This document shows positions 2,105 through 46,200 of a DNA stretch of 64,000 nucleotides, piece by piece. The first letter of the stretch is position 1. Every line of letters starts with the position of its first letter. Origin of the DNA: Gautieria morchelliformis (lineage: Eukaryota; Basidiomycota; Agaricomycetes; Gomphales; Gomphaceae); the NCBI GenBank assembly GCA_015179125.1, contig WHVA01000401.1:43447-107446 (forward strand), written 5' to 3'. The notes under the pieces were generated by a model. That model made no database searches and had not been told where the DNA came from. It saw only the letters and a list, made by a program, of their open reading frames with translations. A program made the position numbers and the translations under genes.

Positions 2105-2462
2105 CTCTGTGCGCTACCCTATAACATACTCTGTGTGCTACCCCATACACTACCATGTCCACCACCTGGTGCAGTACCCTGTGCACTACCCTGTGTGCTA
2201 CCCAGTGCACTACCATGTGCACTACCCCATACACTACCCTGTGTGCCACCCTGTGCACTACCCTTTACACTACCCCCTATGCCGTACGCTATCCTGTAGC
2301 TACCCTGTATGCTACCCTATAATGTACCCTGTGGGCTACCCCATACACTACCATGCTACCCCATATGCTACCCTGTACACTACCATGTGCGCTACCCCAT
2401 ACACTACCCTGTCAGCTACACAGTACGCTACCCCATGAGCTACCCTGTACGCTACCTGTTAA
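2105..2462. repeat. 12-bp minisatellite array 1 (CTACC units)
   Basis: Degenerate 12-bp units of the type CTACC plus about seven bases (for example CTACCCTGTGCA, CTACCCCATACA) repeat for about 350 bp. Because 12 is a multiple of 3, all frames stay open and give artificial Tyr-Pro-Val-His or Leu-Pro-Cys-Thr repeats. The other arrays are at 4015-4183, 14657-18215 (interrupted) and 18531-18932 (reverse orientation). Confidence 0.9.
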
Positions 2463-2465
2463 GGT

Positions 2466-2906
2466 TGTGTTAGTACCACAGTTCGGCTATACTAGGCCGA
2501 AACTCGGGTTTCGGGTCGGAAGGCTTGGCTTCAACCTCTTGGGTTGCGCCCACTCTATGCTCCTCCGTAATTTCGGGATCGGTCTCGGCTATAAGCTGAG
2601 ATACAGGTTTCGATAGCAAGCAAAGGGTCTCAAGTACAATAAGCTAATTTGATATCTGAACTGAGGAGCTACTGTACATGGACTGGAGGTCTGTATAGTA
2701 AAGTAGCATGCAGGGTCGCGAAGAGAACATGATCGGATCAACGGTCCAGGGAAACAAGGGGCAGACAAATGGGGAACTAGTTAATAAGGGAATCAGGGGT
2801 GATGGGAAGTGCGAAGGGAAACCCGAAGGAAGCTGAGATATACCCGAGGTTCCCGAATGAGAGCCGAAGCCAAGCTTGGGTCCGGATCTGGGAATGGGTC
2901 ATAACA
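2466..2906 (+). mobile_element. LTR (family E), 5' LTR of the gag-like element
   Basis: The segment begins TGTGTTAGTACCACAGTTCG and ends GGGTCATAACA, and it is similar over most of its length to the segment at 53820-54254. The gag-like gene starts about 80 bp after it, so this is probably a 5' LTR. The exact first base (2466 or 2468) is uncertain and no target duplication was found. Confidence 0.6.
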
Positions 2907-2986
2907 GTACCTCCCCCTTATGGCCGAACCCATGAGGCCATCGGCGAGCTCCCAGAAATCGCCAAGTCGGGGTAGTTACATAAGCT

Positions 2987-3904
2987 TTGTTTCACGTTCT
3001 GCTTCTTGTCTTCTCCCATCATCATCAATTTCATGGATCAATGTCAGAGACACATGAAATCCCTCTCGAGGTCGATGAGGTGGATGAAGTCGACGCGGAG
3101 CTCGCGTGGGCTGAGCGCGAAGCGGCAGGGTGGATGAGGGAATTGCAGGAAAAGCGGCGACTTGCGCAGGAGCGCAACGCTGCAGTAGAGAGGAAACGGC
3201 GGGAGGATGCCGAAAAAGCTGAAGCAGAACGGAACGCATGGGCTGAAGCCACGCGGATTGCCAAAGAGGCGAAAAATGCTGAAGAGGCATGAAAAGCTGA
3301 GGAGGCTCGGGAGGAAGAGAGGCGGGTTTTGAAGGCGAAAGCCGATGAGGCTCAGAAACCAAAATGGCCAGTTTTCGGACGTGAGCGCCAGCGACTGATG
3401 GAAATGTTGGAAGCTGAAACAATTTGACAAGCCGATGTGGATCAGAATATCCACATTCCGTCGCCCAAGCCATTCACATTGGATTCAGCCACCGCGCAAG
3501 CGCGGATTCTTGCTATGAAGCATGCAGCCGAGAGGAATGCGGCCAAGGGAAAGCCGAAAGCCTCGGGCTCTCAGAAATGGAAAATGACTGAGGAATCAGG
3601 CGAGTCTGATGAAGAGGTGAGTCCTTGGGTTGGGGTGATTCGGTTATTTTTTGACTTATGTTTTTTAGCATGAACCTTGTGACGCATGCAGGCGTCGCCA
3701 GACCTGGTGCCTATGGGGAAAAAAGACACGTGTCAGCAGTGCATGGACCGGAAGGTCCAGTGCAGCTTTGTGGATGGGAAGCGGGAGTGGAAGGAAGAGG
3801 ATGCGACCGAGGGACCGGGGCCGAAGAAGGCCAAGGTGTCACCAGTCAAACCGTCAGGAACGATTCACGGTGGACATCCGTGCGGGCCCATCGGGGGCCG
3901 GGAT
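2987..3904 (+). pseudogene. Gag-like protein with Cys-rich motif, family-E retroelement
   Basis: Starting at 3042 (MSETHEIPLEVDEVDEVDAE) the frame gives an acidic head. A long Ala/Glu/Arg-rich coiled coil follows (3100-3420), and then a Lys-rich stretch. A likely intron runs from GTGAGT near 3616 to the CAG at 3690. After it comes a small Cys motif, CQQCMDRKVQC (3730-3765), like the single-zinc or Zn2Cys6-like knuckles in gag-type proteins of agaricomycete retroelements. In-frame stops at about 3291 (TGA) and 3425 (TGA) break the gene. The downstream pol is lost where minisatellite array 2 begins. The retroelement assignment rests mainly on the upstream LTR and the general shape. Confidence 0.5.
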
Positions 3905-4014
3905 TAAGGGCTTAACGCCCGACAGGTTTTGGGGAGCGGAGGGCTCCCGGATGGTGAGGGGTCTGTTGACTCGGCAAAGCGAGCAACTTGAATGGAGCAA
4001 CCATTTGCTTCAGG

Positions 4015-4183
4015 GTGTGTGCTACCACGTTTGCTACAACGTACGCTACCACGTGTGCTACCAGGTACGCTACCAGGTACGCTACCACCGCTACCACGTG
4101 GGCTACCATGTAGCTACCACGTACGCTACCACGTACACTACCAGGTACGCTACCAGGTATGCTACCATGTACACTACCATGTA
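4015..4183. repeat. 12-bp minisatellite array 2 (CTACCACGTACG type)
   Basis: About 14 units of a 12-bp repeat with a variant core (CTACCAGGTACG, CTACCACGTGTG) closer to the inverted array at 18531-18932 than to array 1. It ends exactly where the AT-rich flank of transposase copy B begins. Confidence 0.88.
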
Positions 4184-4662
4184 GGCGGATGCTCACAACT
4201 TTTTATTACCTGTAGCTTCACCCATTTTATTCTCAAATTATAGAAAAGAAGAGGACAAAAGTACATGCCAATCTTATTGTTGGGATATAAATAAATTTAC
4301 GTTTGTCCCTCCCCGAGCGGGGCTCCGTCATTGTTAGCACCGTTGTTTAAATTACATATCATCACAAAGACTGTCATTATAATCATGCATGCTAACTACA
4401 AAGTTTGGTTTGATTGATTTATCTCCATCTGTTAGTGTATATGTCATCACTTATTGTGGAAGGTAATCTAGACCAGTAGTTGAGAATATAATTCCAGTAA
4501 AATTATATATTCCCTTTATGTTGTTTATGGTTTTATTTAGAGAGTTGAATAGTGAATGCAATATAAAATCGAAATATATAAAGTCGTCATCTTATCAACG
4601 AACTCAACTATACAACACTCCTTTTTCCAACTCATAGTTGTAGCTGAGAACTTGCCTTTATA
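4184..4662. other. AT-rich 5' flank of transposase copy B, possible transposon left end
   Basis: Base composition changes abruptly at 4184. The first bases, GGCGGATGCTCACA, resemble the MITE end GGAGGATGTTCACA (6041), so this may be the left end of the copy B element. No matching right end was found and there is no clear target duplication. No open frame of note; the segment presumably holds the transposase promoter. Confidence 0.4.
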
Positions 4663-6114
4663 ATGAATGAGTCACTCCTTGAAGGATATCAAATGTTGAT
4701 GAATGAACATTGGGGGTTTCTTGATGAAAAATGGCCTTTGTTGAAGCCAATTAAATTTCATAGATCAGGACTAAAACCTGTTTCTGAAATAGATCTCGTC
4801 AAGAAAAGAGTATTAGAGAAGCTTGGACCAATATCAGTGTTTTGCTTCCTAGTAGTGTTGTTTCCATTCAAGCACCATCCAGGTCCATATCGAAATGTAG
4901 AGAAGGGACTATTAATACTCTATCATCTGCTTGAAGGTTGTACATTTGATGATATGAACAGATTTATACCTGGGAGTACTTTTCATGTGATCCATCAGAG
5001 TTTTTTTGGACATGAAAAGGACCTTAATAATGACTTAAATGACAAAATCATTGATTTGTTGGCTCATATGTTTTCCAACATAAGGATTAGAATATTATCT
5101 GCAAAGGATAATAATAAGGAAGAACTATTCAACACAATAACTTTATTCCTTGATGGTCATGACACAAGAGGAACAGAAATAGCAAGATCATCTAAAGTAC
5201 AATGGTCACATAAACACTGAAATTCTGGAATGAGAACTCAAGTAATTATGGATTTTCATGAGATGGCTTTGTTTGTTTCTGATTCATTGCCATGTATCCA
5301 CTCTGATGGAGCAATGTTCACAGGAATGAACTTAAGAGATAAGATGGATAAGGCATATTGTATGGCTCTTGATGGAGGCTATACACTATTTGTGAAACAA
5401 GTAGTAAAGCAAGGTAGATTTAAAGAAATGAATTTCTGCCATCCAATTCGGAAGCAGGAGAATGCTGAACTATCAGATATGGAGAAGCGCTACAATGAAA
5501 GATTCGGTAGTTTCAGATCAAAGATAGAAAGCTTATTTGGAGAGTTAGGAATGACATTTAAGAAGTTAAATAATCAGAAGCCTGTCCAAACATCAAATCC
5601 TAAGATATTCTCTTTGCAGTTTAGATTAGCATGCTTGCTGCTTAATATCAAACAGTTTGTTAAATTAGGAGAGCTCCAAGCACAACCTAATCAAATATCA
5701 TGGATGGAGAGCCATTTTGACTATCCATCAACTGATACCCTCGACTTTGAGTCACTGAGAATCTCACCTCTAAAGGATATTACAGAGGATGCAAAGAAAA
5801 TGTCTAAGTATCAAGCATAATTATTAGCAGGTACAGATACAAATGAATCTGACCAAGATATTGAAGATACATATGAAGTGAACAAAATAGTAGATCATAG
5901 GACAAAAGGAAAGAGAAAAGAATACTTAGTTCAATGGAAAAACTATGAAGATCACACTTGGGTAAGGGAGGAAGATTTTGATACAAGGCAGTGTATGTGG
6001 ACTACATTAGACGTCAAAAGAAAAAGGGTAGACGCTACTAGGAGGATGTTCACATTGACAACAATGTATATTCTTCTAGGATATATTAGATATCTTTTAA
6101 AATATCAACCCTAA
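4663..6114 (+). pseudogene. DDE transposase with C-terminal chromodomain (copy B)
   Basis: One reading frame runs through 4663-6114 with two in-frame stops (TGA 5218, TAA 5818). The N-terminal helical part includes PGPYRNVEKGLLILYHLLEG. A DDE core of the Harbinger/IS5-like (DDE_4 style) type follows: LFLDGHDTRG near 5147, ALDGGYTLF near 5368 and FRSKIESLFGEL near 5512. These supply the two Asp and the Glu expected of the catalytic triad. A chromodomain follows at about 5869-6000 (IVDHRTKGKRKEYLVQWKNY). The protein is a clear homologue of the one at 27302-28649, with the same domain order. A chromodomain on a transposase suggests targeting to methylated histone. Both stops fit C-to-T change. 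The 3' end is disrupted by a MITE inserted at 6041. Confidence 0.7.
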
Positions 6115-6612
6115 CCAAATTCATAATCCACCATTTTGAGCAACTTGTATATTGTGGACATCCTAAATTTTTTTGAATGTTCTGATATTTTCAAAATATG
6201 GTTGTATGTGCTAAAGCATGGTGTGTATTGATATAACAGAGCAATTTCAGAGAGGATGTGGATGACTATATATTAAAAGTATACATGAAACATGTTAGAT
6301 GTACAATCACAGAATATAGAAGCAAGTATGGACAATACCTGTAGTATATTATTATATATGGTTGAGAGATCTGATTAGAAGGTATGTTTAAAATAATATG
6401 CATGTATAGTACAAAGATATGTAACTATTGATGTTTAGACAATGGGGTATACACCCTTTCCTGGGGGAGCAGCAGACTGTGAGAAAGAACTTTGGGGCTA
6501 GGATTAAGCATGCCTTACAGGTGCTGGCCACTGCCTCAATTTTGATATATTTTATGAAATATAGATGAGCTAAGCTATATATACATATATATGACATTTA
6601 TAAACATCCTCC
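6041..6612 (+). mobile_element. MITE-B copy 1 (572 bp, TSD CTA)
   Basis: The inverted ends GGAGGATGTT / AACATCCTCC bound 572 bp of AT-rich non-coding DNA. CTA directly precedes (6038-6040) and follows (6613-6615), a 3-bp target duplication. A near-identical copy is at 30584-31153. The ends resemble those of the 675-bp units of element A (GGAGG.TGTTTGG). Insertion is at the very end of the transposase gene. Confidence 0.8.
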
Positions 6613-12988: not shown

Positions 12989-14167
12989 GTGAAGATGTGC
13001 GACGACCTTTGTCTCCAGACCAAAGCACAGTGACATCCGCCCATCAGAGAGTTCATTCCACTCCCGATTCCAGAATCCGGCTGGGACACCATCAGTGTCG
13101 ACTTCATCGTTGAACTCCCAGAGTCACATGGCTACGACGCAATTATGAACGTCGTGGACTCGGTAAGAAAGGTGTCCCACTTCATTCCGACGCACACGAC
13201 GATCACAGCCCTCGGAGCGGCCCGCCTGTTCCTTGTGCATGTCTGGAAGTTGCATGGGCTCCAGAAGCAAGTCGTTTCTGACTGAGGTCCACAGTTCGTC
13301 GCAGAACTGACTCGGGAGCTCTACCACCTGCTCGGCATAAAGCTGGCTGCCACCACAGCATACCATCCACAGGGTGACGGACAGACGGAACGGGTCAATC
13401 AGGAGCTAGAGCAATATCTCCGCCTCTTTGTCAATGAGAGGTAGGATGATGAGTTACTTCCACTGGTGGAATTCCAATACAACAATCATGTACATTCCGC
13501 CACACAACAGACTCTCTTCATGCTTGACTCCAGACGACAACCGCGGATGGGCTTTCAACCACACCAGGCAGAGTCCCGACTCGAGACAGTCAATGAGTTC
13601 CGAGACCGCATGGACTCCACCCTTTCGGAAGCCAAGTCTGCCCTTGTGAAGGCCAAGGATGACATGGCAAGGTACTACAACCAACGCCGGGTTCCTGCCC
13701 CAGAGTACCAAGTTGGAGACAAGGTGTATCTAGATGCAAGTGACATTCGCACCACATGCCCTTCGCAGAAGCTTGCCCACTGCTACGCATCCGACTTCCG
13801 AACTCCATGTCCCGCCTACACCCCATCTTCAACGTAGTGAAGTTGCTCCCTGTGTTTGAGGACACAATTCGAGGGCGGAAGGCTCGTCTGCCACCTCCAA
13901 CAGAAATTGTAGATGTGGAAGAGCACTATGTGGTGGAACGGTTCCTGGACAGCCGGTTTGTGTGAGGACGACTCCAATTCCTCGTGAAATGGGAAGGGTA
14001 TGGGTATGAGGAGGATTCGTGGGTCCCAGAGCAAGATGTGTCCGCTCTGGACAAACTCCGTGAGTTCTATAGGACACACCCTGGGGCCCCTCACCGAATC
14101 TGCTCGCTGGCCTTTCAATCCCTCATGTCCCGTGCTTCGAGGACGTAGCAGGCTAGAGGGGGGGTGA

Positions 14168-19951: not shown

Positions 19952-20527
19952 TGCGTCCATCCAGGCCCGTGCATCTCCAGCAGGACGTTGGTGAATATGC
20001 CAACCTTACGAAGACGTGGGTGTTCGCTGCTCAGCCATACTGCCCGGTCTGACAGCACGCACATGACGCTTTGCCTCGTCACGACCTGTCGTTGCGCCAT
20101 GGGGTGCACAAGCGGGGCCGGCCATGCGTAGGGATGGTGGCCCAACCAGTATGACGGGCGCAGCATCATGAGAGCCCAGATACTCGTCAGGGAAGCCAGA
20201 CGCAGGTGTACGAGTGTGCATCTGTCCTGTACCGCGTCAGTCGGTGTTCATGCACCTCTCTGGTCTGCGTCATCATCTCGTTCCTCCTTGTCGTTATGCT
20301 GTCCGCATCCATGCCGCGGCTCGCATGCGCCACGCTGGCTGACAGTGTGGCTTTGATTGTGGTGGCAGCACAATGGCTCAGTCGCCATGCTGTGGTCACA
20401 TTTGACAACTCGTACGACGCTCCTCGTCTAGCCTGCTTCGCTGTTTCCTTCCTCGACAGAGTATAATACAAAGAATGAAAATGAGAAGTGGAGAGAGGGA
20501 TCATGTCGTGGATGGAGGTCGGATATA
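19952..20527. other. GC-rich flank of element A, no recognised gene
   Basis: Base composition is clearly more GC-rich than element A. Two overlapping open frames on opposite strands (20206-20466 plus, 20187-20504 minus) have no features I recognise. The last three bases, ATA (20525-20527), are the left target duplication of element A. Similar GC-rich sequence resumes at 29341. Confidence 0.4.
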
Positions 20528-21202
20528 GGAGGTTGTTTGGAAACTATAAGAAGTATCAAACTCTAATATCTCCTTAAGATCATTTAAATACTTGGAGTCT
20601 ATTCTAAACATAATTTGGATTTTAAAACTTTTGGAATTTTTAAAACTTATTTGTACATCACGAAACAAAGCATCTTTCAAGAGCTGAATAGATTATGAAA
20701 CACTGTGGTGAGTTAGAACTTTAAGAATTTTAAAAGGTAGACTCCCTTAGATAGTACATTTCATACACGTGTATGCCATTGACACCTTTAAATACATACG
20801 TGTTACCTCGGAATGGGTGAGTTAACTAGAATATATTTCTATTTGATTCAACATACTAAGAATACCTGGGCGGGTTTGCTTAATTAGGAAGGTTGTAGCA
20901 TGAAAAATCTCCAATAATATCTTACATATTTTACATGGAAAGAACTGCAGTTTAGTTTTTAAAAAATGGAGTACCAACAAAAGTATTAACAGATATCTAT
21001 AAACAGAAGGAAATCATATACAATGGATTCTATTAAATGACCTTTAATTGTTTAGCGTGTAACATGGAGAACTATTTCCCAGAATTGCTTTTTAATGAGG
21101 GAATAGTTTCAGAAAAGGTATCACTATTTAAAGATGGAGTTTTATGGGAACATCACTTTTATTAGTAAACATCTGATATTATAGTAATTCCAAACACCCT
21201 CC
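20528..21202 (+). repeat. Left 675-bp terminal direct repeat of element A
   Basis: It begins GGAGGTTGTTTGGAA and ends TTCCAAACACCCTCC, so the unit has its own inverted termini. It is about 98-99 percent identical by eye to 28663-29337 and has the same length. No coding capacity. Confidence 0.92.
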
Positions 21203-21237
21203 TTGTAGGACAATATGTTCACTTCATTTAGAAACAG

Positions 21238-21795
21238 GCTGATATGAATATCACAGAATATAAATTGCATAATTTTACCACAACAAAATAATATGATATA
21301 TAGGGAAGGGGTGGGGGGTCACCGACCTTGGGTCTGGATGCCAAACAGTAACATGGCTAACCGCTTAGGGGGGTCCCCGGTGGTAAAACTCCCCACTTCA
21401 GCATCACATTTTTACCACTATCATTGATAACATATAGATCAACATATCTTCTCACTAATTATATATAAACGTTAAAATATCACTGTTTTGACATATTTAT
21501 ACTGTTCTCAGTTTATACACAGGGTTTGTTAATAATACAGGGTCAAAACAGTGATATTTTAACATTTATATATAATTAGTGAGAAGATATGTTGATCTAT
21601 ATGTTATCAATGATAGTGGTAAAAATGTGATGCTGAAGTGGGGAGTTTTACCACCAGGGACCCCCTAAGCGGTTAGCCATGTTACTGTTTGGCATCCAGA
21701 CCCAAGGTCGGTGACCCCCCACCCCTTCCCTATATATCATATTATTTTGTTGTGGTAAAATTATGCAATTTATATTCTGTGATATTCATATCAGC
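21238..21795. repeat. Long inverted repeat (hairpin), arms about 255 bp
   Basis: Arms 21238-21492 and 21542-21795 are near-perfect reverse complements around a 49-bp AT-rich loop. They contain a G/C block (GGGAAGGGGTGGGGGGTCAC) within AT-rich DNA. It lies between the left terminal repeat and the helicase start at 21868. It could be a replication origin or hairpin end, a promoter region, or an inserted foldback element; no clear target duplication was found. Confidence 0.9.
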
Positions 21796-21867
21796 AAATT
21801 ATTGATAATAATATTCTTATTGTTAGAAATTGATTTTTTGTAGCCTATAATAGTATATGGTAGGACA

Positions 21868-23263
21868 ATGTCTGGCAGCTATGAAAAGGCTTTATCTAAG
21901 TTACAAGAGCTATCTTTCATGGATTGTATAGGTAGTCATTGTGATAACATTCTTGTTGGTGTTCTATATGAACTTCTTGTTGGAGAATTAGTTCATTCTG
22001 ATAAAGAATGGTGGTATTTTGAAGGAGGAACTTGGCAAAAGGATGGAGGTGAATACTTGTACAATATCATATCAGAAATATTTGTAGGTTTTCTCCATGA
22101 TGAAATACCTAAGGATGACATTCCTATTAATGACATTGTTAGATACCTTGGTTCTTGTATTACTACCATGAGGTTGATGAAGGCACTATCTTATGAGCTG
22201 GGAGATCCTAAGTTTGTAGGAAAACTTAACTCTAATGCAGGTCTTTTGGGAATGAAGAATGGGACCTATGAGCTTAACTCCAAATCTTTTAGAAAGGCCA
22301 TATATTCTGACCACATTTCTCTGTCCTGTGGTGTTAAGTATAAAAAGAAATATAAGGATGAGGATTTAGTTGAGTTTATGAAGATACTTAAACAGATATT
22401 TCCAAGGGATGATGTATTAGATTTTTTCATACGAACATGTGCTTCTATGCTTGAAGGCTATAATAAATACAAAGTATTCTATGTATGGTGGGGAAAGGGA
22501 AATAATGCAAAGACATTAATGTAAAGATTTATTTCATCTATTCTTGGTGATTATGCAGCTTGTCTTTCCACATCCTTGATTACTGGTAAAAGGGCTAACT
22601 CTTCTGATGCTACTCCAGACATACAATACGCAAAGAATAAGTTGGCTGTTTTCTTACAAGAACCCAATCCTGAGGAAAAGATACAGGTAGGTAGAATCAA
22701 GGAATTGACAGGTAATGATAAAATACACTCAAGGGGATTATTCAAATCTAGTGAAATTATGGAGTTTAGAGCTAAGATAGTTGTTGTGGCCAACAATGCA
22801 CTTGAAGTACCAGGTATGGATGTACCCTTCAGAAGGAGGATAGTTGTAATACCATTTGAAAGTACCTTTACTGATTCTACGGATAGTGGTGAATATGTTT
22901 TTTTCTGAAGATGTAGAGATGGAAGAAAATATTTTCAAGTATAGAGAAATATTCATGGCTATGATGCTGGATGAATATTCAAGATTTGTTAAGGAGGGTC
23001 TGAATATTCCTCAGTACATTAAGGATAAGACTTCAGAGTATATAACTCTTAATAACTATATGTTGAAGTATATAAGAACTGAGCTTCTCTACAAACCTGG
23101 TAAAAACTTACTTGCTTCGGATCTGTATGATAGCTTCAAAGAATGGTTTTGGCAATCATGTCCAGGTAGACATATTCCATTGTTCACATCTTTCTTAACA
23201 GAGTTAAGGAATGAAGGATATGAGGAGGAACATGGAATTGTGATGAATATAAAACATGTTTGA
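21868..23263 (+). pseudogene. D5-type superfamily-3 helicase, NCLDV-like
   Basis: ATP-driven replicative DNA helicase of the D5/P4 type that follows primases in large DNA viruses and some plasmids. A D5_N-like region with WWYFEGGTWQKDGGEYLY starts near residue 50. NAGLLGMKNGTYEL lies near residue 125. The P-loop GKGNNAKT is at 22492-22515, FLQEPNPEEK near 22655, KELTGNDKIHSRGLF near 22705 and VVVANNALEVPG near 22780. RRRIVVIPFESTF is near 22830. Order and wording match giant-virus helicases; a primase domain is absent. It is broken by TAA at 22522, right after the P-loop, and by a frame change in a T run near 22900. The C-terminal 120 codons continue in the second frame. Both lesions are simple. 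The class is clear; the viral affinity is judged from motifs. Confidence 0.75.
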
Positions 23264-23312
23264 TGGAATAATGTAAGATGTGGTTGACTTTTTTAAAATT
23301 CCAGCACAGTTA

Positions 23313-23669
23313 TTACTTTTTACAGGCTTTCCCAGCTCTATCCTTATTTATTATTAAATTATCAAGTTTATCATTGATTTGCTCCAACTTATTGAGAATA
23401 TCTTTATGATATGTAGAGCATCTCTCTTCAAACAAATTATCAGTCATTTCCTCCAACCTTTGGAAAACATCTGCATTAGATGCAGAGGCTCTTTCTTCAA
23501 ATGACCTATCAAACAACTTATCAACTATATCCTCTGACTGTTTTTCCTCTTTTATTTTTCTTCTTCGATCCCTCTGATATTTGTTTATACAGTCTTTACA
23601 ACGTGAATCTTTTGCTCTATAAAAGAACATGTCCATTTTCTTTTCCTCACATCCTATGCAGAACTTCAT
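23313..23669 (-). CDS. Small zinc-ribbon protein 1 with repeated coiled coil
   Basis: The intact 118-codon frame lies opposite to the helicase and is convergent with it (about 50 bp apart). The N-terminus has CIGC, 16 residues, then CKDC, a four-cysteine zinc ribbon. A basic helix (YQRDRRRKIKEEKQ) follows. Such N-terminal ribbons occur on giant-virus and phage homing endonucleases, but no nuclease domain follows here. The rest is predicted coiled coil with two related stretches (FEERASASNADVFQRLEEM and FEERCSTYHKDILNKLEQI). It is related in plan to the protein at 25087-25470. Nucleic-acid binding is an inference. Confidence 0.6.
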   Translation of the reverse strand: MKFCIGCEEKKMDMFFYRAKDSRCKDCINKYQRDRRRKIKEEKQSEDIVDKLFDRSFEERASASNADVFQRLEEMTDNLFEERCSTYHKDILNKLEQINDKLDNLIINKDRAGKACKK

Positions 23670-23836
23670 TGCTGCTATAAGAGTATGTGATAGTCAACAA
23701 TATTCATTTTTAGGGTTATATATTAGTAGTGTTATATAGTTACTATAGAAATGTATTATTCAGTAATGTGGTGAGCAGATTCAAAAAATTGAATTAGTTC
23801 CAGATTGAATATGTGTAGTAGGATAATAGTAGGTCA

Positions 23837-24955
23837 TTGTGTGTAATAGGCATCATGAATGTACTCTCCAAGATTGTAAGCTCCCGTCAGTCTGATAAAG
23901 ATAATGCTGGTAAAGATGATGGTACTCCTGTATCTGATACCAGACACAGATTTAAGTATCCAGATCTAAAAAGTGGTCTCACTGATCATATAACAGCTCA
24001 TATGAAGGGAAACAAATTTGATTATGTAACTATAAGTAAGGCACCTAAGGTATCTAGAAATGCTATGTTACAAGCTCTCAGGGAATTTAAACCTTACAGT
24101 AGAGAGAAGATAGGACAGATTGACTTAGATGATATACCTCCAATTGATCTTGTTAAAGAGAAAGAAGAATTTGTCTTATCAGCTGCACTAAATACAAAGG
24201 GCCTTAACAAATACATTTTGATTGATAGTGTATATGTTGACTTTGTTCCACTCTCATCATTCTTGGATTCATTTTCTGAGATAAGAATCTCATTGATTGA
24301 TGGAAGAAAGGCCCATGATAAAGTAGTAAGGAGTTACGTTGGAAATTCTAATATTAGTGAGAAAATAATGGGTGGTTTGGATTATTGCTTTCCTACCAAG
24401 AGTTTGGGAAAAATAAAATTTGTTATCAGTTGCAGGGGAACAGATATAGAGCAAGGAGAGGAATGGGGTGTGATAAAAGTAAAGATTGATATCCAACATT
24501 TGGTATATCCTAAACAGGTTCCTGTGAAGGATACTGTGGGAATATTAGACATGGCTTACACAGCCTTTGAGGATCTCAAGACAGATCCCAGGCATTTCAA
24601 TACATTAGTTGATCAGAAAGATCTAGATGCATTGAAAATAATGCATAGAGATAATGATATAGTAGACCAGTCCAAACCCATTGAGGAATTATCCAAACCT
24701 GTAACATATGCAGGTACTAGATTCCTAGGTGGAGGTGCCCAAGGCTCAGATAATGCCAGCATTATTGATGATATCCCATCTGCATCTAGTAAGGAGGATG
24801 ATGAGGATAGTAAAATTAAGAAATGGGTTAACAAGGTTGAGCCAGATGATGAGATAAAGGATGTAGCAGCTCCTAAGAAGAATACATTATTCATCAAGGT
24901 GAATGGGAATAAGTCTCCTTTTAAGAAATCAACCAGGTTTAGTGATGATAAGTAG
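23837..24955 (+). CDS. 372-codon protein of unknown function, weak 30K-movement/jelly-roll resemblance
   Basis: This is the only long intact frame in element A. The ATG at 23837 gives 372 codons; the ATG at 23855 (MNVLSKIV) is equally plausible. The central 250 residues look like a beta-rich domain. The segment ISLIDGRKAHDKV, followed about 55 residues later by EEWGVIKVKIDIQHL, fits the L-x-D-x(50-70)-G pattern known for 30K-superfamily plant-virus movement proteins, which are thought to descend from jelly-roll capsid proteins. The C-terminus is acidic then Lys-rich (KSPFKKSTRFSDDK). I treat the resemblance as weak: one short pattern can occur by chance. A single-stranded nucleic-acid-binding or coat-like role would suit the neighbours but is not shown. 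Confidence 0.55.
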   Translation: MCVIGIMNVLSKIVSSRQSDKDNAGKDDGTPVSDTRHRFKYPDLKSGLTDHITAHMKGNKFDYVTISKAPKVSRNAMLQALREFKPYSREKIGQIDLDDIPPIDLVKEKEEFVLSAALNTKGLNKYILIDSVYVDFVPLSSFLDSFSEIRISLIDGRKAHDKVVRSYVGNSNISEKIMGGLDYCFPTKSLGKIKFVISCRGTDIEQGEEWGVIKVKIDIQHLVYPKQVPVKDTVGILDMAYTAFEDLKTDPRHFNTLVDQKDLDALKIMHRDNDIVDQSKPIEELSKPVTYAGTRFLGGGAQGSDNASIIDDIPSASSKEDDEDSKIKKWVNKVEPDDEIKDVAAPKKNTLFIKVNGNKSPFKKSTRFSDDK

Positions 24956-25024
24956 GAATTGAGATTATGCTGAATCTCCTTTCAAGAAATCAACCAGTCT
25001 AGTGATGATAAATAGGAATGTTAT
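24903..25024 (+). repeat. Imperfect tandem duplication at the 3' end of the 372-codon gene
   Basis: A stretch of about 60 bp containing TCTCCTTTTAAGAAATCAAC, then AGTGATGATAAGTAGGAAT and GAGATTATGCTG, is repeated with a few changes directly downstream. The second copy lies beyond the stop codon. Confidence 0.75.
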
Positions 25025-25086
25025 TTGAGATTATGCTGTTTTAAAATTCATATACTCACCTAACTAAACTCTTAGTTTAATATAAA

Positions 25087-25470
25087 CTAAACTCTATCAA
25101 TTGATAATTTTTTAATCCCATCTTTTAAGTTTTCTAGTGTATCTTTAACTTCTTTCCGTTTCTTTTTATTGTATGCCTTAATGTAGTCCCTCCAACACCC
25201 TTTACAATACCTAGTAGCACTAGACTCATAAAATTCAACATCAGATTTTTTACATTTAAAGCAAATACAAACTTCTTTAACTACATCTCTTTCATCTTCA
25301 TCTTTTATACTAAAGACACCTATATCATCTATTCCATTTTCTTTCATATACTCTCCTAATGTTTTCCTCTTGTCATTCTTAGTAATTGGTTTTATGATGT
25401 AGTCTTCTAAATCATTGTCCCTTAAGAAGCCACCTAGTTTTTTATTTAGATCTGGTTTCTTACCTGACAT
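25087..25470 (-). CDS. Small zinc-ribbon protein 2
   Basis: Intact 127-codon frame on the minus strand, between two plus-strand genes. CFKC, 15 residues, then CKGC form a zinc ribbon near residue 75, followed by a basic stretch (YIKAYNKKKRKEVK) and a short amphipathic tail. The ribbon plus basic helix is the same module as at 23313-23669, but here it follows an extra 65-residue charged N-terminus. The two look like diverged paralogues. A role in DNA binding or regulation of the element is possible but unproven. Confidence 0.55.
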   Translation of the reverse strand: MSGKKPDLNKKLGGFLRDNDLEDYIIKPITKNDKRKTLGEYMKENGIDDIGVFSIKDEDERDVVKEVCICFKCKKSDVEFYESSATRYCKGCWRDYIKAYNKKKRKEVKDTLENLKDGIKKLSIDRV

Positions 25471-25563
25471 TCTGTCTTAGTTAAAAGATTAGTTTATACT
25501 GTTCATCAATCATTTTACTTTCCTAAATTGAATTATTATGAACTGATATACTAGTGATAGGAA

Positions 25564-27233
25564 ATGAATACTATTAATAGCACTAGAGAGACAAGGAATA
25601 GGATAATATGTACAATTGTCTCTATTATTAGGGAGCATAATCCTCCAGATATAGCAGAGGCAGATTATACAACTGATTTCAAAGTATTAATACCCTCCCT
25701 TGACTATGATGTTCCAATCTTTTGTGACAGTGTTATTCTCTGGTCCATTGGTAAGAACAGAATAGATAAGATACATCATCAATGAAAAGATCACTTTGAC
25801 AATTCTTTCAAGATAGATCTTCTTGCTGCCCAAAAAGGAATTTCAGAATTGATAAAGGATGACATTGCTCCAAAAGAGACTCAATATTTCTCTCTTAAGA
25901 TTTCACTATCAGAGGTTAGTATAAATAAAGTCCTCTATTTCCTTGAACATATAAAATCTGACAATGTAATTCTCCATGATATTGACATTACTCAGGATGT
26001 TCCATATACAAATAGAGAGAGAGTAGAAGAACATATTCTAGAGAGAGGAATAGAAAGAAGATTTATTGTCAGTGACCTACATAAGGTAGGGAAGAATTGT
26101 ATGTCTTTCTATAATAGAGATCCTTCAGAAGATACTGGAAGAACTCTTCTTAGGATTAAAGTGTATAACAAGTTCATCCAGATGCTGGAGAGCTCTAGTG
26201 TTAGAACCACTCTAGGATCTAGAATACATATATGTTTGTAGATCCTACAGATTCTATGGAGAGAACATTTGAAAGAACAAGAAAAGTTGGACTTACAAGG
26301 ATAGAAATGAAGTTCTATGGTCAAGAAATTCACAACTTAGATTATTATATTAAGAAATTCACCAGAACCAAAAGAAAGTACTTACAAGGTTGCAAATTTT
26401 ACAAAGCCTCATTTGATAGTCAATGGAGCCGACTTATTGACAAAATACATAAGGACCACCTAATAATGGTGTACCTAAAGAGTGATAATATGTTTGCATA
26501 TTGTCACTGGTGGAACTCCATAACAAAGAAAATGCAAGGGTGTTATAATACAATATCACAAAATGACGACTTGAAAACATTAATAGCAAACTACAGCTTC
26601 AATGAAATGACTACAAAACTTATAATTGTAGATATTGATGGAGAAGCCTGTAAAGAATATAGGAGGGTAACTAATGCAATTACTCTTATCCCAGGTCCTC
26701 AGAGGGGATTATATCCACAAAGTAGGGCTCAGCTATATCCAGAAGATGTAGGACTAGTAGAATATCAAGGGATTAATATAGGCTGGCCTGATTTTAGGAT
26801 TAGACCAAGTGATAATCCTCTAGCACAGATAATAGAAGTATCTGAGTCAGAATATTTAGAAGATATAACACGCTTCAATGGTTACCAAGCGGCATATAGC
26901 ATATTGGAACCATATTCAAGATATCAGGCTATAGCAAAAGGAATGTCTGAATGGAGAGGAAGAGAATATTTATTCCTCAATGTAATAGATTGTAATGACA
27001 GTTCGTTGCTGAAAATCAGATGTGGAGGACAACTTTGTAAGTTAATGATTGATAAAACCAAGAAGACCTATTTCATAACTCAGAACTTAATACCTGGAGG
27101 TAGAGACATTAATGTGAAACTATGTAGAGAATCTCCCAGTAACCTTAGTGATCAATCTGATAGCAGAGAAACATCAGATGAAGAATCAATAATTGACAAA
27201 GTACGAAGACTAAGAATAGAGAATAATATTTAA
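25564..27233 (+). pseudogene. Possible replication-initiation (Rep_trans/phage gene II-like) protein
   Basis: About 555 codons in two frames. One in-frame TGA (25783) and one frame change near 26230 break it. Three blocks recall single-strand nicking initiators of plasmids and filamentous phages: an acidic block ILHDIDITQDVPY near 25975, TLLRIKVYNKF near 26145, and GLTRIEMKFYGQEI near 26290 after an extra segment. In Rep_trans and phage gene II/X families, similar RIKxYNK and RIE blocks surround the active site. I cannot confirm a catalytic Tyr or metal-binding His pair. The C-terminal third (26650-27230) is not recognised and ends in an acidic, Ser-rich tail. Neighbouring helicase and hairpin favour a replication role, but this remains a hypothesis. 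Confidence 0.4.
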
Positions 27234-27301
27234 AAATCCAATACAATCAGATCTATTAAATTGAATATTCATCCGTCTAACCATAGTTTATAGAATTTAT
27301 C

Positions 27302-28649
27302 ATGTCTCTTATTGAAGAATTTAATAAGCTGATGGATCAACAATGGAAGTTCCTTTATAGAGAATGGCCTCAAATCAAACCATCAAAGTACCACAGGTTT
27401 GATACTAAACCTGTCAATAGAATAAGCCATGTTAAAGATATTGTTCTTCAGAGACTTGGTATTATTCCCGTCTTTTTCTTCCTTGTGGTAATCTTTCCTA
27501 CCCAAGACTATCCTGGACCTTACAGAAATGTGGAGAAAGGGCTTTTAATATTATATCAACTACTACAAGGCTATTCCTTAAATGATATGTCAGCCTTTAT
27601 GCCCAAAAGTAGTTATTATGATATTTTTAGAAAATTCTATATAAATCAAACCAATGATATTGATAGAAGGATCACAGCTATGCTAAGTTCTATGTTTTCA
27701 ACAATTGATATACGTATTCATTCTGCACAGAAGAATCCTCCATTATTTAGACATGTAACATTAATGATAGATGGACACGATACTAGAGTAACTCTTATTG
27801 GTGAGAAGAGTGAATGAATGTTTTCATATAAATTCAGAAATTCTGGACTTCGTATACAGGCTGGTATCGATGCAAGTGGAATGTTTTTATTCACATCTAA
27901 ATCTGTACCATGTAAAGATAATACAGATGGAGTTATGCTTGGAAAGATGAAATTAGAAAAGCATATTAATAAGCTTGATTGTATAGCATTAGATGGAGGA
28001 TATACCCAGTATCTTGCAAAGATAACAAGTACTACTGAATTAGATATGCTTAATTTCTGTATACCTATATGTAAATCAAAAGGAATAGACCTGTCAAATG
28101 AAGAAAAAATATTCAACAAAACTTTTGGAAGCTTTAGGTCTAATATTGAAGCTTCCTTTGGAGAACTAGTTACCACATTTAAGAAACCCAGCAATGAAGG
28201 GGGTATAAGAGTTTCTGATGCTGAGGTATTCACAATCCAATTTAGGCTTGCATGTCTCTTGTTAAATGTGAAAAAGTTTGTTAATTTGGGTAACATTCAA
28301 CCTCAGCCTCATCACTCTTCATGGTTGTTGCCAGAGTTTGACTACTGGAAAGAGGAAAATATGGAGACATGAAAATCTTCCATCATTAAAGGATAGCAGA
28401 TGTAATGCTCAGGAGTTACTCAAATTGCAAAGAGAGTTCCTAAGTATAACATTGGGTGATGATGAAGAGATGGAGGAGGAGGATACATATGAGATTGAGG
28501 AAATAATAGACCATAGAGGAAAAGGGAAGTTAAGGGAGTATCTTGTGAATTGGAAGGGATATGAAGAAGCAACATGGCAAGGGGTTAAGACCTTTGATAC
28601 AACAGAGTGTATAGATGAATATTGGAAACAGAAGGACGATGAAGTCTGA
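27302..28649 (+). pseudogene. DDE transposase with C-terminal chromodomain (copy A)
   Basis: Likely mover of element A. The start at 27302 (MSLIEEFNKLMDQQW) matches copy B. The helical N-terminal part is followed by the DDE core: MIDGHDTRV (about residue 157), ALDGGYTQYL (about 231) and FRSNIEASFGEL (about 281), supplying the probable catalytic Asp, Asp and Glu of a Harbinger/IS5-like fold. A frame change near 28300-28370 leads into an acidic linker and a chromodomain at 28488-28600 (IIDHRGKGKLREYLVNWKGY). An in-frame TGA at 27815 falls where the family has WxxSYK-type sequence. Copy B (4663-6114) shares domain order but carries its stops elsewhere, so the lesions arose independently. The gene ends 14 bp before the right terminal repeat. 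Confidence 0.72.
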
Positions 28650-28662
28650 TAAATTTTAAGAA

Positions 28663-29337
28663 GGAGGTTGTTTGGAAACTATAAGAAGTATCAAACTCTA
28701 ATATCTCCTTAAGATCATTTAAATACTTGGAGTCTATTCTAAACATAATTTGGATTTTAAAACTTTTGGAATTTTTAAAACTTATTTGTACATCACGAAA
28801 CAAAGCATCTTTCAAGAGCTGAATAGATTATGAAACACTGTGGTGAGTTAGAACTTTAAGAATTTTAAAAGGTAGACTCCCTTAGATAGTACATTGCATA
28901 CACGTGTATGCCATTGACACCTTTAAATACATACGTGTTACCTCGGAATGGGTGAGTTAACTAGAATATATTTCTATTTGATTCAGCGTACTAAGAATAC
29001 CTGGGCGGGTTTGCTTAATTAGGAAGGTTGTAGCATGAAAAATCTCCAATAATATTTTACATATTTTACATGGAAAGAACTGCAGTTTAGTTTTTAAACA
29101 ATGGAGTACCAACAAAAGTATTAACAGATATCTATAAACAGAAGGAAATCATATACAATGGATTCTATTAAATGACCTTTAATTGTTTAGCGTGTAACAT
29201 GGAGAACTATTTCCCAGAATTGCTTTTTAATGATGGAATAGTTTCAGAAAAGATATCACTATTTAAAGATGGAGTTTTATGGGAACATCACTTTTATTAG
29301 TAAACATCTGATATTATAGTAATTCCAAACACCCTCC
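28663..29337 (+). repeat. Right 675-bp terminal direct repeat of element A
   Basis: Same length and orientation as 20528-21202, with substitutions such as TCATACACG/GCATACACG and AAAAAATGG/AAACAATGG. It ends CCAAACACCCTCC, followed by ATA, the outer target duplication. Confidence 0.92.
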
Positions 29338-29340
29338 ATA

Positions 29341-30094: not shown

Positions 30095-31858
30095 CAGGTG
30101 GTCTGTCCACATGCTGGACTCGTCTGCGATTTGTAGCCACTCAAGCCAGAAGCTCTGCTTGGTGGCAGGTATTAGGTCCATGTAGCTGTTCCTTGCATTG
30201 TGATACTCCTGATGCGCTGGGTGTGGCAGGTCATTCCAAGCTAAGTTGGCATACCTGGCTGTCCTTCGCATCTTGGATCTTGCCTGACTAAGCTCTCTGG
30301 TCCACCATCTTTTGGTGTATGGGGACTGGATAGAGTATGGTACAACAGCCTCAACCATCGTGTTGATAGCTGTGGTCAGTGTGGTTAGCCGTTCTTCAAG
30401 TCCTTCTGCTCCTGTGATCTCGTTCGGGTGAGGGAGTTTGCTTAGCTGGCTGGTTAAATGCTTGAATTTCGGCGAGTCTACCTGCCACCAATTCATTCTT
30501 GCTGACTCCTCAGCCATAGGAACTGATACGTCGATTGTGCTGGAGATAGGGAAGTGATCGGCACAGGGGGGTTGCATATCTGGGGAGGATGTTCACATTG
30601 ACAACAATGTATATTCTTCTAGGATATATTAGATATCTTTTAAAATATCAACCCTAACCAAATTCATAATCCATCATTTTGAGCAACTTATATATTGTGG
30701 ACATCCTAAATTTTTTTGAATGTTCTGATATTTTAAAAGTATGGTTGTATGTGCTAAAGCATGGTGTGTATTGATATAACAGAGCAATTTCAGAGGGGAT
30801 GTGGATGACTATATATTAAAGTATACATGAAACATGTTAGATGTACAATCACAGACTATAGAAGCAAGTATGGACAATACCTATACTATATTATTATATA
30901 TGGTTGAGAGATCTGATTCGAAGGTATGTTTAAAATAATATGCATGTATAGTACAAAGATATGTAACTATTGATGTTTAGACAATGGGGTATCCACCCTT
31001 TCCTGGGGGAGCAGCAGACTGTGAGAAAGAACTTTGGGGCTAGGATTAAGCATGCCTTACAGGTGCTGGAAACTGCCTCAATTTTGATATATTTTATGAA
31101 ATATAGATGAGCTAAGCTATATATACATATATATGACAGTTACAACCATCCCCCTGGGAAGGTGATGCACTGAGAGAAGAGGTCATGCAGTGCCGAACTG
31201 CTGGAGACGTTATCTGGGTGTGTTAGATTTTTGGTGGTGGATGCGCAGGGACATCCTTCGGCAGAGCCATAAGCATATCATGCTGTGCTAGTAGTTCTAG
31301 GAGCATTTGCACCTTGTACAGATTGGCTGTTGTAAATAGGTGCACGTTACGCTCTTCGTCCCATAGGGGGTGCTGGCGGTTGAAGTCTCCCATGCATAAC
31401 ATCTTCGATGGGTCGATAAGTTGTGCGCTGCCTGTAGGCTGTCCGATTTCTCACAGTCATTATCTATATTGAAGATGGTGACAGTCCCGGCGTTGGTTTG
31501 TATAGCCACTGCCACTACATCTTGCGAAGGTATGTCGATTTGCTGCCATGTGCTGGAAAGAAGGCGATGGTTGATGAAGGTGGCGGTGCAGGATTTTTTG
31601 TGGTTGTCCCTGTGCGCTGTGGGGATGATCAAGCACCACCTGTAGTTGATGCGGGTTTGCCTAGGAAGTCGAAGTAGGGCTCCTGCAGAAGAATTGTATC
31701 ATAAGTATTAGGGTCTGTAGAGTTAATCAAGTCCTGCTGTGCTGCATCAGACTTGTTGAGGTTTTGCTGCCATATTTTCAACGTCGTGAGGGTACCGCAT
31801 GATGTTGTACTATTCATGAAGTCTGGGTTGGTTTTGGGGGGTTGGATTTTTGTCATTG
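30095..31858 (-). pseudogene. LINE ORF2 fragment (endonuclease to pre-RT), split by MITE-B
   Basis: On the minus strand the apurinic-type endonuclease start LKIWQQNLNKSDAAQQDLI (about 31795) is followed by ILLQEPYFDFLG (about 31690), conserved EN motifs of fungal LINEs. After the MITE at 30584-31153 the same element continues as PPCADHFPISSTI and RWWTRELSQARSKMRR (about 30560-30260), the linker between endonuclease and RT. Several stops and frame changes are present and the RT is missing. The same EN motifs occur in the LINE at 37663-37995. The copy ends at about 30095 with no poly-A visible. Confidence 0.7.
30584..31153 (+). mobile_element. MITE-B copy 2 (570 bp, TSD CTG)
   Basis: GGGAGGATGTT at the left and AACCATCCCC at the right, with CTG on both sides (30581-30583, 31154-31156). 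It is nearly identical to 6041-6612 throughout. It sits inside a LINE endonuclease region, which reads on when the MITE is removed. Confidence 0.82.
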
Positions 31859-43293: not shown

Positions 43294-46200
43294 TCACCCC
43301 CCTCTAGTGTGCTGCATCCTCGAAGCACAGGACACAAGGGATTGAAAGGCCAGCAAACGGATTCGGTGAGGGGCACCAGGGTGTGTCCTATAGAACTCGT
43401 GGAGTTTGTCTGGAGTGGAGACATCTTGCTCCGGGACCCACGAATTCTCCTCATACCCATACCCTTCCCATTTCACGAGGAATTGGAGTCGTCCTGGCAC
43501 AAACCAGCTGTCCAGGATCCATTACACCACATAGTGCTCTTCCCCATCTACCATTTCCGGTGGAGGTGGCAGACAAGCCTTCCAACCTGGAATTGGGTCC
43601 TCAAGTGCAGGGAGTAACTTCGCTACGTTGAAGACGGGGTGGAGGCGGGACATGGACATTGGAAGTCGGAGGTGGTACGTGTTCCATCCAACCCTCCACA
43701 TCACTGTGAAGGGCCCCAGGTAGCGGTGGGCGAGCTTCTCTGAAGGGCATGTGGTGCAGATGTCGCTCGCATCTAAATACACCTTGTCTCCGACCTGGTA
43801 CTCTGGGGCAGGAACCCGGCATTGGTTGTAGGACCTTGCCATGTTGTCCTTGGCCTTTGCAAGGGCGGACTTGGCTTCCTAAAGGGTGGAGTCCATGTGG
43901 TCTCGGAACTCATTGACTGTCTGTCACGACCGTGCATTTCCGATTTCTGACCTTCAGTTCTGCACACATTCCGCCTCTCCAATAATTCCAACATTCCACC
44001 CCTTGTCCTACTCCCTTGTTCTTTCGACTCTATTACTCGGACCCTCCGGACCCGCTTCATTGTTCATCAAGATCATACATCTGGTCATCCTTGTAGTTCA
44101 TTGTCAGATATGTTTTTCCGACCCCTTGTTATTTTGCCATTGTTTTACCTTACCCTGAACCCCCTTGTAGTCCGATTCTTCCCAATTAGTTAGTTCCCAC
44201 GTATGTCTACCCGACTTCCGCTCCCCCTGGAATTTGCTTAGTACTACCTCATTACATGTTGTCTCAGCTCTTTGTATAAAAGCCTCTCATGTATGTCTGT
44301 TATTCTGCAATAAGATAATCGCCTTCGATACTTGATTTCCTTCGCTCCATCTCCTGTTCTTAGCACAGCGAGTCTAGCAAGACCTCCGTCTCTCCACCTT
44401 CCGTCTCTCCAACTTCCGCCTTCCATCTTCCGCCTCAGTTCCAACTCAAGTTCCGACCAACCCTTAGTTCAGTACTTTCTGACTTCCGACCCATTTCTGA
44501 AATACTTAGGACGATAGTTCATTGGGGGCGCAATGCATAAGTTGAAGCCGCTGTCCTTTCCAGTTCCGACTTAGCGGAAATCTCGATACGTAACACTGTC
44601 TCGAGTCAGGACTCTGCTGGCATGGCTCAAAGCCTATCTGCGGGCATCATCCTGAGTCAAGCATAAAGGGGGTCTGCTGCGCGGCAGAATGTACATGGTT
44701 TTTGTATTGGAATTCCACCAGTGGAAGTAAGTCATCCCAGTCATCCTGCCTCTTGTTGACAAAGAGGCGGAGATATTGCTCCAGCTCCTGATTGACCCAT
44801 TCTGTCTGTCCGTAACCCTGCAGATGGTATGCTGTGGTGGCAGCCAGCTTTATCCCAAGCAGGCGGTAGAGCTCTCTAGTCAGTTCCGCGACGAACTGCG
44901 GACCTCGGTCAGAAATGACTTGCTTTGGGAGCCCATGCAACTTCCAGACGTGCGCAAGGAACAGGTGGGCCGCTCCAAGGGCCGTGATCATTGTGTGTGT
45001 CGGAATGAAGTGGGACATCTTGCTTACCAAGTCCACGATGTTCACGATTGCATTGTAGCGATGAGACTCTGGGAGTTCAACAATGATGTCAACACGGATG
45101 GTGTCCCAGCGGGATTCTGGAATTGGGAGTGGAACAAGCTCTCCGATGGGCGGATGCTGCTGTGCTTTGGTCCGGAGACAAAGGTCGCATGTCTTCATGT
45201 ACTGTGCAATGTAGTTGGACATCTGAGGCCACCAGTAGTTCCGAGCCACTAACTCCAGTGTCTTCCACCTGCCAGCATGCCCTGTGACCTGGGTGTCATG
45301 GTGTTGGGACACAATGCGGCAGCGGAGGTCCGCCCCATCCGGAACATACACCTTGCCCCTGAAGTGGAACAACCCATCACGTTCTGACCACCCCGCTGCC
45401 CGTACTGACCGTGAATTCCCTTTCCGCAGCTCCTCCACTGCCTTCACTACCAATTCCTCCTTCTCTCCATCCCAGTACTGCCTACGGATGTCCCGGAGCA
45501 TTTCCGCTTCCGCCCAAACTGCGGTCACTCCTTTGAGTGCACGGATTGCAAAGAGGCTTGGGCGGAGCAATGTCATGTTGGCATTGTCTCCGCTTCTGCT
45601 TCCATGATCCACACCACGGTATAGGACATCGGGCTTGCCCATGGTGTGGCTGGGGCGGTGATGGAGCATGAAGTCAAACTGAGACAGGTATAGGGACCAC
45701 CGTGCTTGTCGTCAGTTTAATTTCTTGGAGGTGCCAAAGTACTCTAGTTCTTGTGGTCTGTCCAGATCTCGAACGGACACAGAGCACCTTCAAGGAAGTG
45801 TCGCCACTCCTCCAGCACCCGGATGATCGCCAGCATTTACTTGTCGTGGATCTCGTAATTATGCTCCACTGGATTAAGGCTCTTGGAGAAGAAGGCGATC
45901 GGATGCCACCTGCTACCATCTTCTGATGACAGCTGTGAAAAGACCGCTCCTGTGGCTGCATCAGAAGAATCTGCCTCTACTCGATAAGGGTGAGAGTCAT
46001 CGGGAAAGATCAGGACCGGGGCAGAGGTGATCAGCTCCTTGAGTTTGTCAAAGGAGGCCTGTTCCGGCTCCCCCCACCACCATCCAACATCCTTCTTGGT
46101 GAGGTCAAAGAGGCACGGGCATGACAGGAGAAGTCCTTGATGAACCGCCGGTAGAAATTGACAAACCCGATGAAGGACTGGACTTCCTTTTTGTTCTGCG

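What the first reader, a model, noticed from the sequence alone, without database searches (positions are those of the whole stretch)
20528..29337. An 8.8-kb transposon-like element carrying a virus/plasmid-like replication cassette
Seen: two same-length (675 bp) direct repeats, each with inverted ends, an ATA duplication only outside the pair, and between them a hairpin, a D5-type helicase, two zinc-ribbon proteins, a 372-codon unknown, a possible Rep and a chromodomain DDE transposase. Known: D5-type helicases belong to large DNA viruses, phages and plasmids, not to ordinary DDE transposons. Inference: a replicon was captured by, or evolved together with, a DDE transposon, giving an element that could both replicate and integrate. 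I know of no named family with this set.
Basis: partly seen in the sequence, partly recalled or inferred. Interest (0 to 1): 0.93.

Follow-up and report, generated by a model that had tools for sequence, protein, structure and literature searches.

The report
Fungal transposon carrying its own replicon
In a truffle-like mushroom genome there is a repeated family of jumping DNA elements that combine a cut-and-insert enzyme with what looks like bacterial-plasmid and virus-type copying machinery, a combination for which we found no named family.

Summary
Window 20528-29337 is one mobile element in Gautieria morchelliformis (Gomphales): 675-bp long terminal direct repeats (LTDRs), each with 15-bp inverted ends, and an ATA target duplication outside the pair only. 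Empty sites carry one ATA (window element) and one TTA (copy C175). C175's LTDRs differ at 1 site (17-32 to ten others), and two further LTDR families occur in this genome, so the repeats did not land separately.

Inside are a D5-type SF3 helicase (profile match to ASFV C962R, 5.6e-34), a DDE_Tnp_4 transposase with chromodomain, and a Rep whose predicted fold and most catalytic residues match bacterial Rep_trans rolling-circle initiators. Beside the left LTDR lies a palindrome (arms ~250 bp) whose loop is inverted in 2 of 5 copies. The 366-aa unknown resembles viral 30K movement proteins, but only through a low-confidence model.

Best reading: an LTDR-flanked DDE transposon with a rolling-circle replicon inside. 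Anatomy is shown; replication is inferred. The window copy is dead (helicase, Rep and transposase broken). Closest in architecture: animal KolobokP, reported with a transposase and a nuclease only.

The parts
20525..20527 (.). left target-site duplication ATA
   Evidence: empty site with one ATA
20528..21202 (+). left LTDR, 675 bp, with 15-bp terminal inverted repeats
21238..21492 (+). palindrome, left arm
21493..21541 (.). 49-bp loop; same orientation as C175 and C179, inverted in C180 and C41
21542..21795 (-). palindrome, right arm (inverted repeat of the left arm)
21868..23263 (+). D5-type SF3 helicase, broken (TAA at 22522, frameshift near 22902); open 468-aa versions in C175 and C180
23313..23669 (-). 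118-aa CxxC..CxxC protein; its C180 version has a weak endonuclease VII match
23855..24955 (+). 366-aa protein, 30K movement-protein-like (weak, structure-based)
25087..25470 (-). 127-aa CxxC..CxxC protein
25564..27233 (+). Rep_trans-like rolling-circle initiator, broken (TGA at 25783, frameshift near 26220); open 557-aa version in C179
27302..28649 (+). DDE_Tnp_4 transposase with C-terminal chromodomain, broken (TGA at 27815, frameshift about 28370-28450)
28663..29337 (+). right LTDR, 675 bp
29338..29340 (.). right target-site duplication ATA

Best explanation
It is a DDE DNA transposon of composite-like build (LTDR - interior - LTDR) whose interior is a rolling-circle replicon. Shown: the unit inserts whole with a 3-bp duplication; the two LTDRs of a copy are closer to each other than to others in C175, C448 and C260; helicase, Rep and the 366-aa gene carry the mark of purifying selection; the Rep model resembles Rep_trans initiators and keeps most of their catalytic residues; a long palindrome adjoins the left LTDR. 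Inferred: Rep nicks at the palindrome and, helped by the SF3 helicase, copies an extrachromosomal circle holding one LTDR; rolling-circle multimers put an interior between two identical LTDRs; the transposase, binding the inverted ends of each LTDR and chromatin through its chromodomain, cuts from one LTDR start to the next LTDR end and inserts the unit. Solo LTDRs come from LTDR recombination or from transposition of one LTDR. The 30K-like protein may bind nucleic acid and move the episome between hyphal compartments (speculative).
For: Empty sites with one ATA (window) or one TTA (C175). LTDR pairs: C175 1 difference against 17-32 to the 10 other LTDRs compared; C451 pair sisters in the tree, support 0.886; C448 7 and C260 5 against 12-17. 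3-bp TSDs at 5 of 5 and 16 of 20 single LTDRs. Rep: AlphaFold pLDDT 87; best PDB match by Foldseek the Geobacillus rolling-circle initiator 4cij; six BFVD matches at E<=0.001, best A0A345MNV4, which PMC13107129 names an Inoviridae Rep_trans initiator. Residues D55 27/28, D141 32/33, D145, K200, Y202, K204, R247 33/33, Q/E207 31/33, E249 32/33 line up by motif spacing with RepDE D46, D142, D146, R189, Y191, K193, R212, E196, E214 (PMC4797284). Helicase: D5_N, C962R 5.6e-34. Palindrome in 5 of 5 copies of this family that reach the region, and in C695 and C249; none of that size found in the Rep-less C448 element. Ka/Ks of the window copy against others: 0.16-0.17 helicase, 0.28 the 366-aa gene, 0.36 Rep.
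Against: No circle or multimer was seen. No examined copy has every gene open. C695 and C279 carry Rep without a helicase match in the stretches searched; C448 has LTDRs and transposase without Rep, so Rep is not needed for the LTDR build. C279 has Rep but no palindrome was found in the stretches read. C179's LTDRs are not sisters and its flanks give no TSD. C451's LTDRs are no closer to each other (7) than the left one is to two solo copies (7 each). C695's pair is no closer than some solos. No sequence profile (Pfam, PDB) finds the Rep; its Foldseek PDB match is weak (E 6.4e-3), TBP ranks next and ties in the second look. RepDE's conserved R140 is D139 here, and T176, Y178, G180 have no clear counterparts; I made no superposition of active sites. 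No chance control was run for the shared palindrome words.
Confidence: 0.67

Rival explanations
1. An LTDR DDE transposon in which Rep and helicase are passengers or serve only DNA processing during transposition; there is no independent replication. The palindrome is a regulatory or silencing structure.
For: The C448 family has LTDRs and an open 459-aa transposase without a Rep match or a large palindrome, and is abundant (506 first-look candidates, 40 scored). C695 lacks a helicase match.
Against: Ka/Ks below 0.4 on helicase, Rep and 366-aa gene for the window copy against others; near-invariant Rep motif residues; palindrome found in the Rep-bearing copies C451, C175, C179, C180, C695, C249 and not in C448.
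Confidence: 0.21
2. Rep is the main mobiliser: a Helitron-like or relaxase-like rolling-circle transposition starting at the palindrome, with the DDE transposase moving mainly the LTDRs.
For: Rep_trans enzymes also act as relaxases of conjugative elements (PMC4797284). A captured fragment shared by five loci breaks within the palindrome loop.
Against: The window and C175 copies end at LTDR termini with 3-bp TSDs, a DDE outcome; the loop breakpoint looks like a single event.
Confidence: 0.08
3. An endogenous DNA virus: helicase, Rep and a jelly-roll-like protein of a virus or virus-like plasmid, mobilised by a transposase it acquired.
For: D5 helicase closest among solved structures to ASFV C962R and poxvirus D5; 366-aa protein matches viral 30K movement proteins, which derive from capsid jelly rolls (PMC10306228).
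Against: No capsid, packaging ATPase or protease recognised by Pfam in the frames scanned; no relatives found in IMG/VR viral contigs for Rep, helicase or 366-aa protein.
Confidence: 0.1
4. Two 675-bp MITEs inserted separately beside unrelated genes.
For: Many single 675-bp copies with their own TSDs exist.
Against: TSD only outside the pair, single-TSD empty sites, near-identical LTDRs in C175, same interior at several loci.
Confidence: 0.01

Closest known systems
[quoted passage not shown] PMC9587614)
   Same: LTDR-interior-LTDR, LTDRs about 450 or 660 bp with 11-18 bp inverted ends, RR..YY termini, short TSDs, many solo LTDRs.
   Different: KolobokP is reported from animals; [quoted passage not shown] No Rep, helicase, palindrome or chromodomain was described in the parts I read. 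Our transposase matches DDE_Tnp_4.
PHIS (PIF/Harbinger-ISL2EU-Spy) DDE transposons (PMC4482050)
   Same: 3-bp TSDs; DDE_Tnp_4 is the Pfam domain I associate with this group (recalled).
   Different: TSDs not restricted to TWA; no Myb/SANT partner found in the frames scanned; LTDRs and replicon genes; chromodomain.
Rep_trans rolling-circle initiators (pT181-type plasmids, inoviruses; PMC4797284) and archaeal Rep-Arvir (PMC13107129)
   Same: TBP-like fold in the model, catalytic tyrosine, acidic metal ligands, K/R-x-Y-x-K-x-x-Q/E, R-x-E.
   Different: Encoded in a eukaryotic transposon; no PF02486 sequence match; conserved arginine 140 of RepDE is an aspartate here; about 275 further C-terminal residues.
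Teratorn (piggyBac-herpesvirus fusion; PMC10175614) and Polintons
   Same: DDE-type mobiliser joined to viral replication genes. The Teratorn review proposes that rolling-circle concatemers place one genome unit between two transposon copies.
   Different: Unrelated replication genes; 8.8 kb instead of ~180 kb for Teratorn; no polymerase B or capsid genes recognised.

Membership tests
KolobokP | LTDR-interior-LTDR with short TIRs in each LTDR | tested here: met
KolobokP | RR..YY termini | tested here: met
   GG..CC
KolobokP | Kolobok-superfamily transposase | tested here: inconclusive
   Pfam gives DDE_Tnp_4 and Chromo, and a sub-threshold DDE_Tnp_1 match for C448; no Kolobok reference sequences at hand
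KolobokP | His-Me finger nuclease | tested here: inconclusive
   No such Pfam match; one small protein matches phrog_1035 endonuclease VII at 1e-3
PHIS (PIF/Harbinger group) | DDE_Tnp_4-type catalytic domain with DDE triad | tested here: met
   (D157, D231, E283 in C179, placed by motif)
PHIS (PIF/Harbinger group) | 3-bp TSD (TWA in PIF/Harbinger proper) | tested here: inconclusive
   3 bp met; sequences include ATA, CAA, TTC, TAT, TTT, so not TWA only
PHIS (PIF/Harbinger group) | Myb/SANT partner protein (as in Nuwa members) | tested here: not met
   no such Pfam match in the reading frames scanned
Rep_trans | catalytic tyrosine and metal-binding residues in order on the right strands | tested here: met
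   secondary structure, against residues listed in PMC4797284; by motif spacing, not superposition; R140 is D139 here and T176/Y178/G180 are not clearly matched
Rep_trans | TBP-like curved-sheet fold | tested here: met
Rep_trans | PF02486 sequence profile match | tested here: not met
   not among the families matched by the 33 A1 members at E<=0.1
Rep_trans | origin nicking activity | not testable with these tools
   needs biochemistry
D5-type SF3 helicase | D5_N domain and AAA+ core | tested here: met
   GKGNNAKT at residue 209
30K movement proteins | 30K profile match | tested here: not met
   no Pfam match at E<=10; PF17644 and PF01107 silent in the genome, though their controls were silent too
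30K movement proteins | jelly-roll core with D motif | tested here: inconclusive
Polinton/Maverick | protein-primed PolB, retroviral-type integrase, capsid genes | tested here: not met
   no such Pfam match in the frames scanned
Helitron | HUH Rep with Pif1-type helicase, no TSD | tested here: not met
   helicase is D5 type; 3-bp TSD
LTR retrotransposon | reverse transcriptase, gag | tested here: not met
   no such Pfam match in the frames scanned

The most novel reading that the evidence does not exclude
A new class of eukaryotic mobile element, a self-replicating LTDR transposon driven by the first eukaryotic Rep_trans rolling-circle initiator, with a flip-flopping palindromic origin, a D5 helicase and a virus-derived 30K movement protein that lets the episome spread between fungal cells.
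Probability: 0.32. Interest if true: 0.96.

Novelty: categorically new. Interest (0 to 1): 0.88.

Why it matters
Rep_trans initiators were described as apparently restricted to bacteria, with a distant archaeal cousin (PMC13107129, passages seen). Finding their likely fold and active site inside a fungal DDE transposon would extend the family to eukaryotes and supply a link between plasmids, viruses and transposons. It also offers a mechanism for how LTDR-type DNA transposons keep two identical ends: rolling-circle multimers of a one-LTDR circle. If the 30K similarity holds, a movement-protein gene has been recruited into a transposon.

Tried and rejected
Rejected: separate MITE insertions; Helitron, Polinton, LTR retrotransposon. 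Led nowhere: viral-contig scans with Rep, helicase and the 366-aa protein, plasmid search with Rep, phage search with the 366-aa protein, PDB sequence searches with Rep and with the 366-aa protein (only a match at E 1.1), 30K family searches in the genome (controls silent too). Ten literature searches: in the titles and abstract starts listed I saw no fungal transposon with this gene set; only open-licence PMC papers are searchable, and several of the lists were cut short.

Corrected on the way: I first took the C695/C249 loops as a second case of loop inversion. One search shows that C249 carries a larger inversion that splits Rep, so relative to the neighbouring 98-aa gene the loops agree; only the 675-bp family supports flipping. 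C248 and C695 have identical flanks and are counted as one locus. The helicase-Rep fusion fragments (C154, C222, C648, C311, C399) share foreign upstream sequence, so they are a captured fragment, not short elements. The C448 LTDR query of 577 bases begins with 4 flanking bases, so that LTDR is about 573 bp. Loop inversion could be an assembly artefact if reads were shorter than the arms: the host genome paper says Illumina, PacBio or both were used, without saying which for this species in the passages I read; the 93 sequences then held contain no N. Ka/Ks between transposases of distant families failed (saturated; end), and the last comparison of that script (Rep of two families) did not run.
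Full report
WHAT IS THERE. The window is G000:C451:43447-107446 of a 122-Mb assembly. Annotated proteins found with the element's helicase and 366-aa protein, on contigs of the same lengths as C451, C175 and C180 (107446, 222510, 221185), are named Gautieria morchelliformis, a Gomphales basidiomycete. Element 20528-29337 is AT-rich (GC 0.30-0.36 per kb inside, about 0.45 in the adjacent bins). Two 675-bp direct repeats differ at 7 positions and carry 15-bp inverted ends. ATA flanks the outside only. A related empty site (C293:664-945, 90% identical over query 20-300) has one ATA at the junction; the C175 element has two empty sites (C653, C134, 93%) with one TTA. So 8.8 kb moved as one piece.

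COPIES. The LTDR search listed 41 matches, only 40 of 92 candidates being scored. Three LTDR pairs are visible: C451 (window), C175, C179; C180 has the left LTDR and an interior truncated within Rep; C179 lacks roughly element bases 2220-4640. Of 25 single copies inspected, 21 have exact 3-bp TSDs (5 of 5; 16 of 20). Two of those 21 share the same flanks and are probably one insertion. Of the 4 without a TSD, three share their left 8 bases and the start of the right flank, so they are probably one duplicated insertion, and one has a right flank that reads like the start of the interior. Within-pair LTDR differences: C175 1, C451 7, C179 11; C175 to others 17-32. The left C451 LTDR is equally close (7) to two solo copies, but the pair is sister in the tree (support 0.886); C179's pair is not, and its flanks give no TSD.

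RELATED FAMILIES IN THE SAME GENOME. C695, 49338 to about 55767 (LTDRs of about 557 bp, TSD CAA; C248 is the same locus), carries palindrome, 98-aa gene, Rep, transposase and two genes shared with C448. C448, about 72267-79862 (LTDRs about 573 bp), carries an open 459-aa transposase with chromodomain and no Rep match; its flanks read CTT and CTC, so its TSD is not exact. C260:379929-386415 is a second pair of that family with TSD TTA. First-look candidates: 647 and 506, 40 scored each. Three solo copies of the 557-bp family fetched with flanks all have TSDs. Within-pair against between-copy LTDR differences: C448 7 and C260 5 against 12-17; C695 6 against 6-12, not separated.

SELECTION AND MOSAICISM. 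Ka/Ks: helicase 0.16-0.17 between C451 and three copies; among those three copies changes are too few to tell (0.9-1.5); 366-aa gene 0.28 (10 synonymous, 11 other changes); Rep 0.36 (8 and 12). The window copy is mosaic: element bases about 1250-2900 are mostly 84-90% identical to C175/C179/C180 with two bins near 95%, and 96-99.6% to fragment C41 where that fragment covers them, while most other bins are 93-100%.

PALINDROME. Arms of about 250 bp and a 49-bp loop (40 in C41) lie just inside the left LTDR. Arms differ at 1-6 columns within a copy and at 1-16 between copies. The loop is inverted in C180 and C41 relative to C451, C175 and C179. C695 has the same arrangement beside its left LTDR. 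AGGGGGGTCC occurs in the palindromes of C451, C175, C695 and C249, TTTACCACCA in those of C451, C695 and C249 (no chance control). This suits an origin processed as a hairpin, but recombination between arms or assembly error could also flip a loop.

COMPARISON. KolobokP (PMC9587614; abstract, sections 5 and 9, 12 passages seen) has the same composite-like layout and similar LTDR sizes, but no replication genes were mentioned. The Teratorn review (PMC10175614, passages seen) proposes that rolling-circle concatemers give a unit flanked by two transposon copies; the LTDR pair identity of C175, C448 and C260 fits that idea. PMC4482050, PMC12730594, PMC10306228 and PMC7550596 were seen in passages only. 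I call the element categorically new for its gene set; the layout alone would be a new variant of a known kind.

Noticed in passing
window 4327-6612 and 30584-31154: A copy of the C448-type family (transposase 4663-6045, 91.5% identical, one TGA) and a single C448-type LTDR, in the same window.
   Followed up: partly
L017, L018, L019, L045, L046 (C154, C222, C648, C311, C399): A captured fragment joining helicase residues 1-155 to Rep residues 147 onward (of the window's 333-aa piece), carried in another repeat; one breakpoint lies in the palindrome loop.
   Followed up: partly
L044 and L028 (C249): Rep is split by an inversion that includes the palindrome.
   Followed up: no
L056:1539-2270, L056:3253-3765, L056:3908-4255: Three genes of unknown function (243, 170, 115 aa) in C448: the 115-aa gene recurs in C695 and C279, the 170-aa gene in C279, the 243-aa gene in C695 and C249, with only a 27-residue match in C279.
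   Followed up: no
window 13756-14073 and 43363-43548: Weak matches to the C-terminal part of the transposase, 27% and 31% identical.
   Followed up: no
window 23313-23669: Small minus-strand zinc-type protein; its C180 version has a weak endonuclease VII match (1e-3). KolobokP also has a small nuclease on the complementary strand.
   Followed up: no
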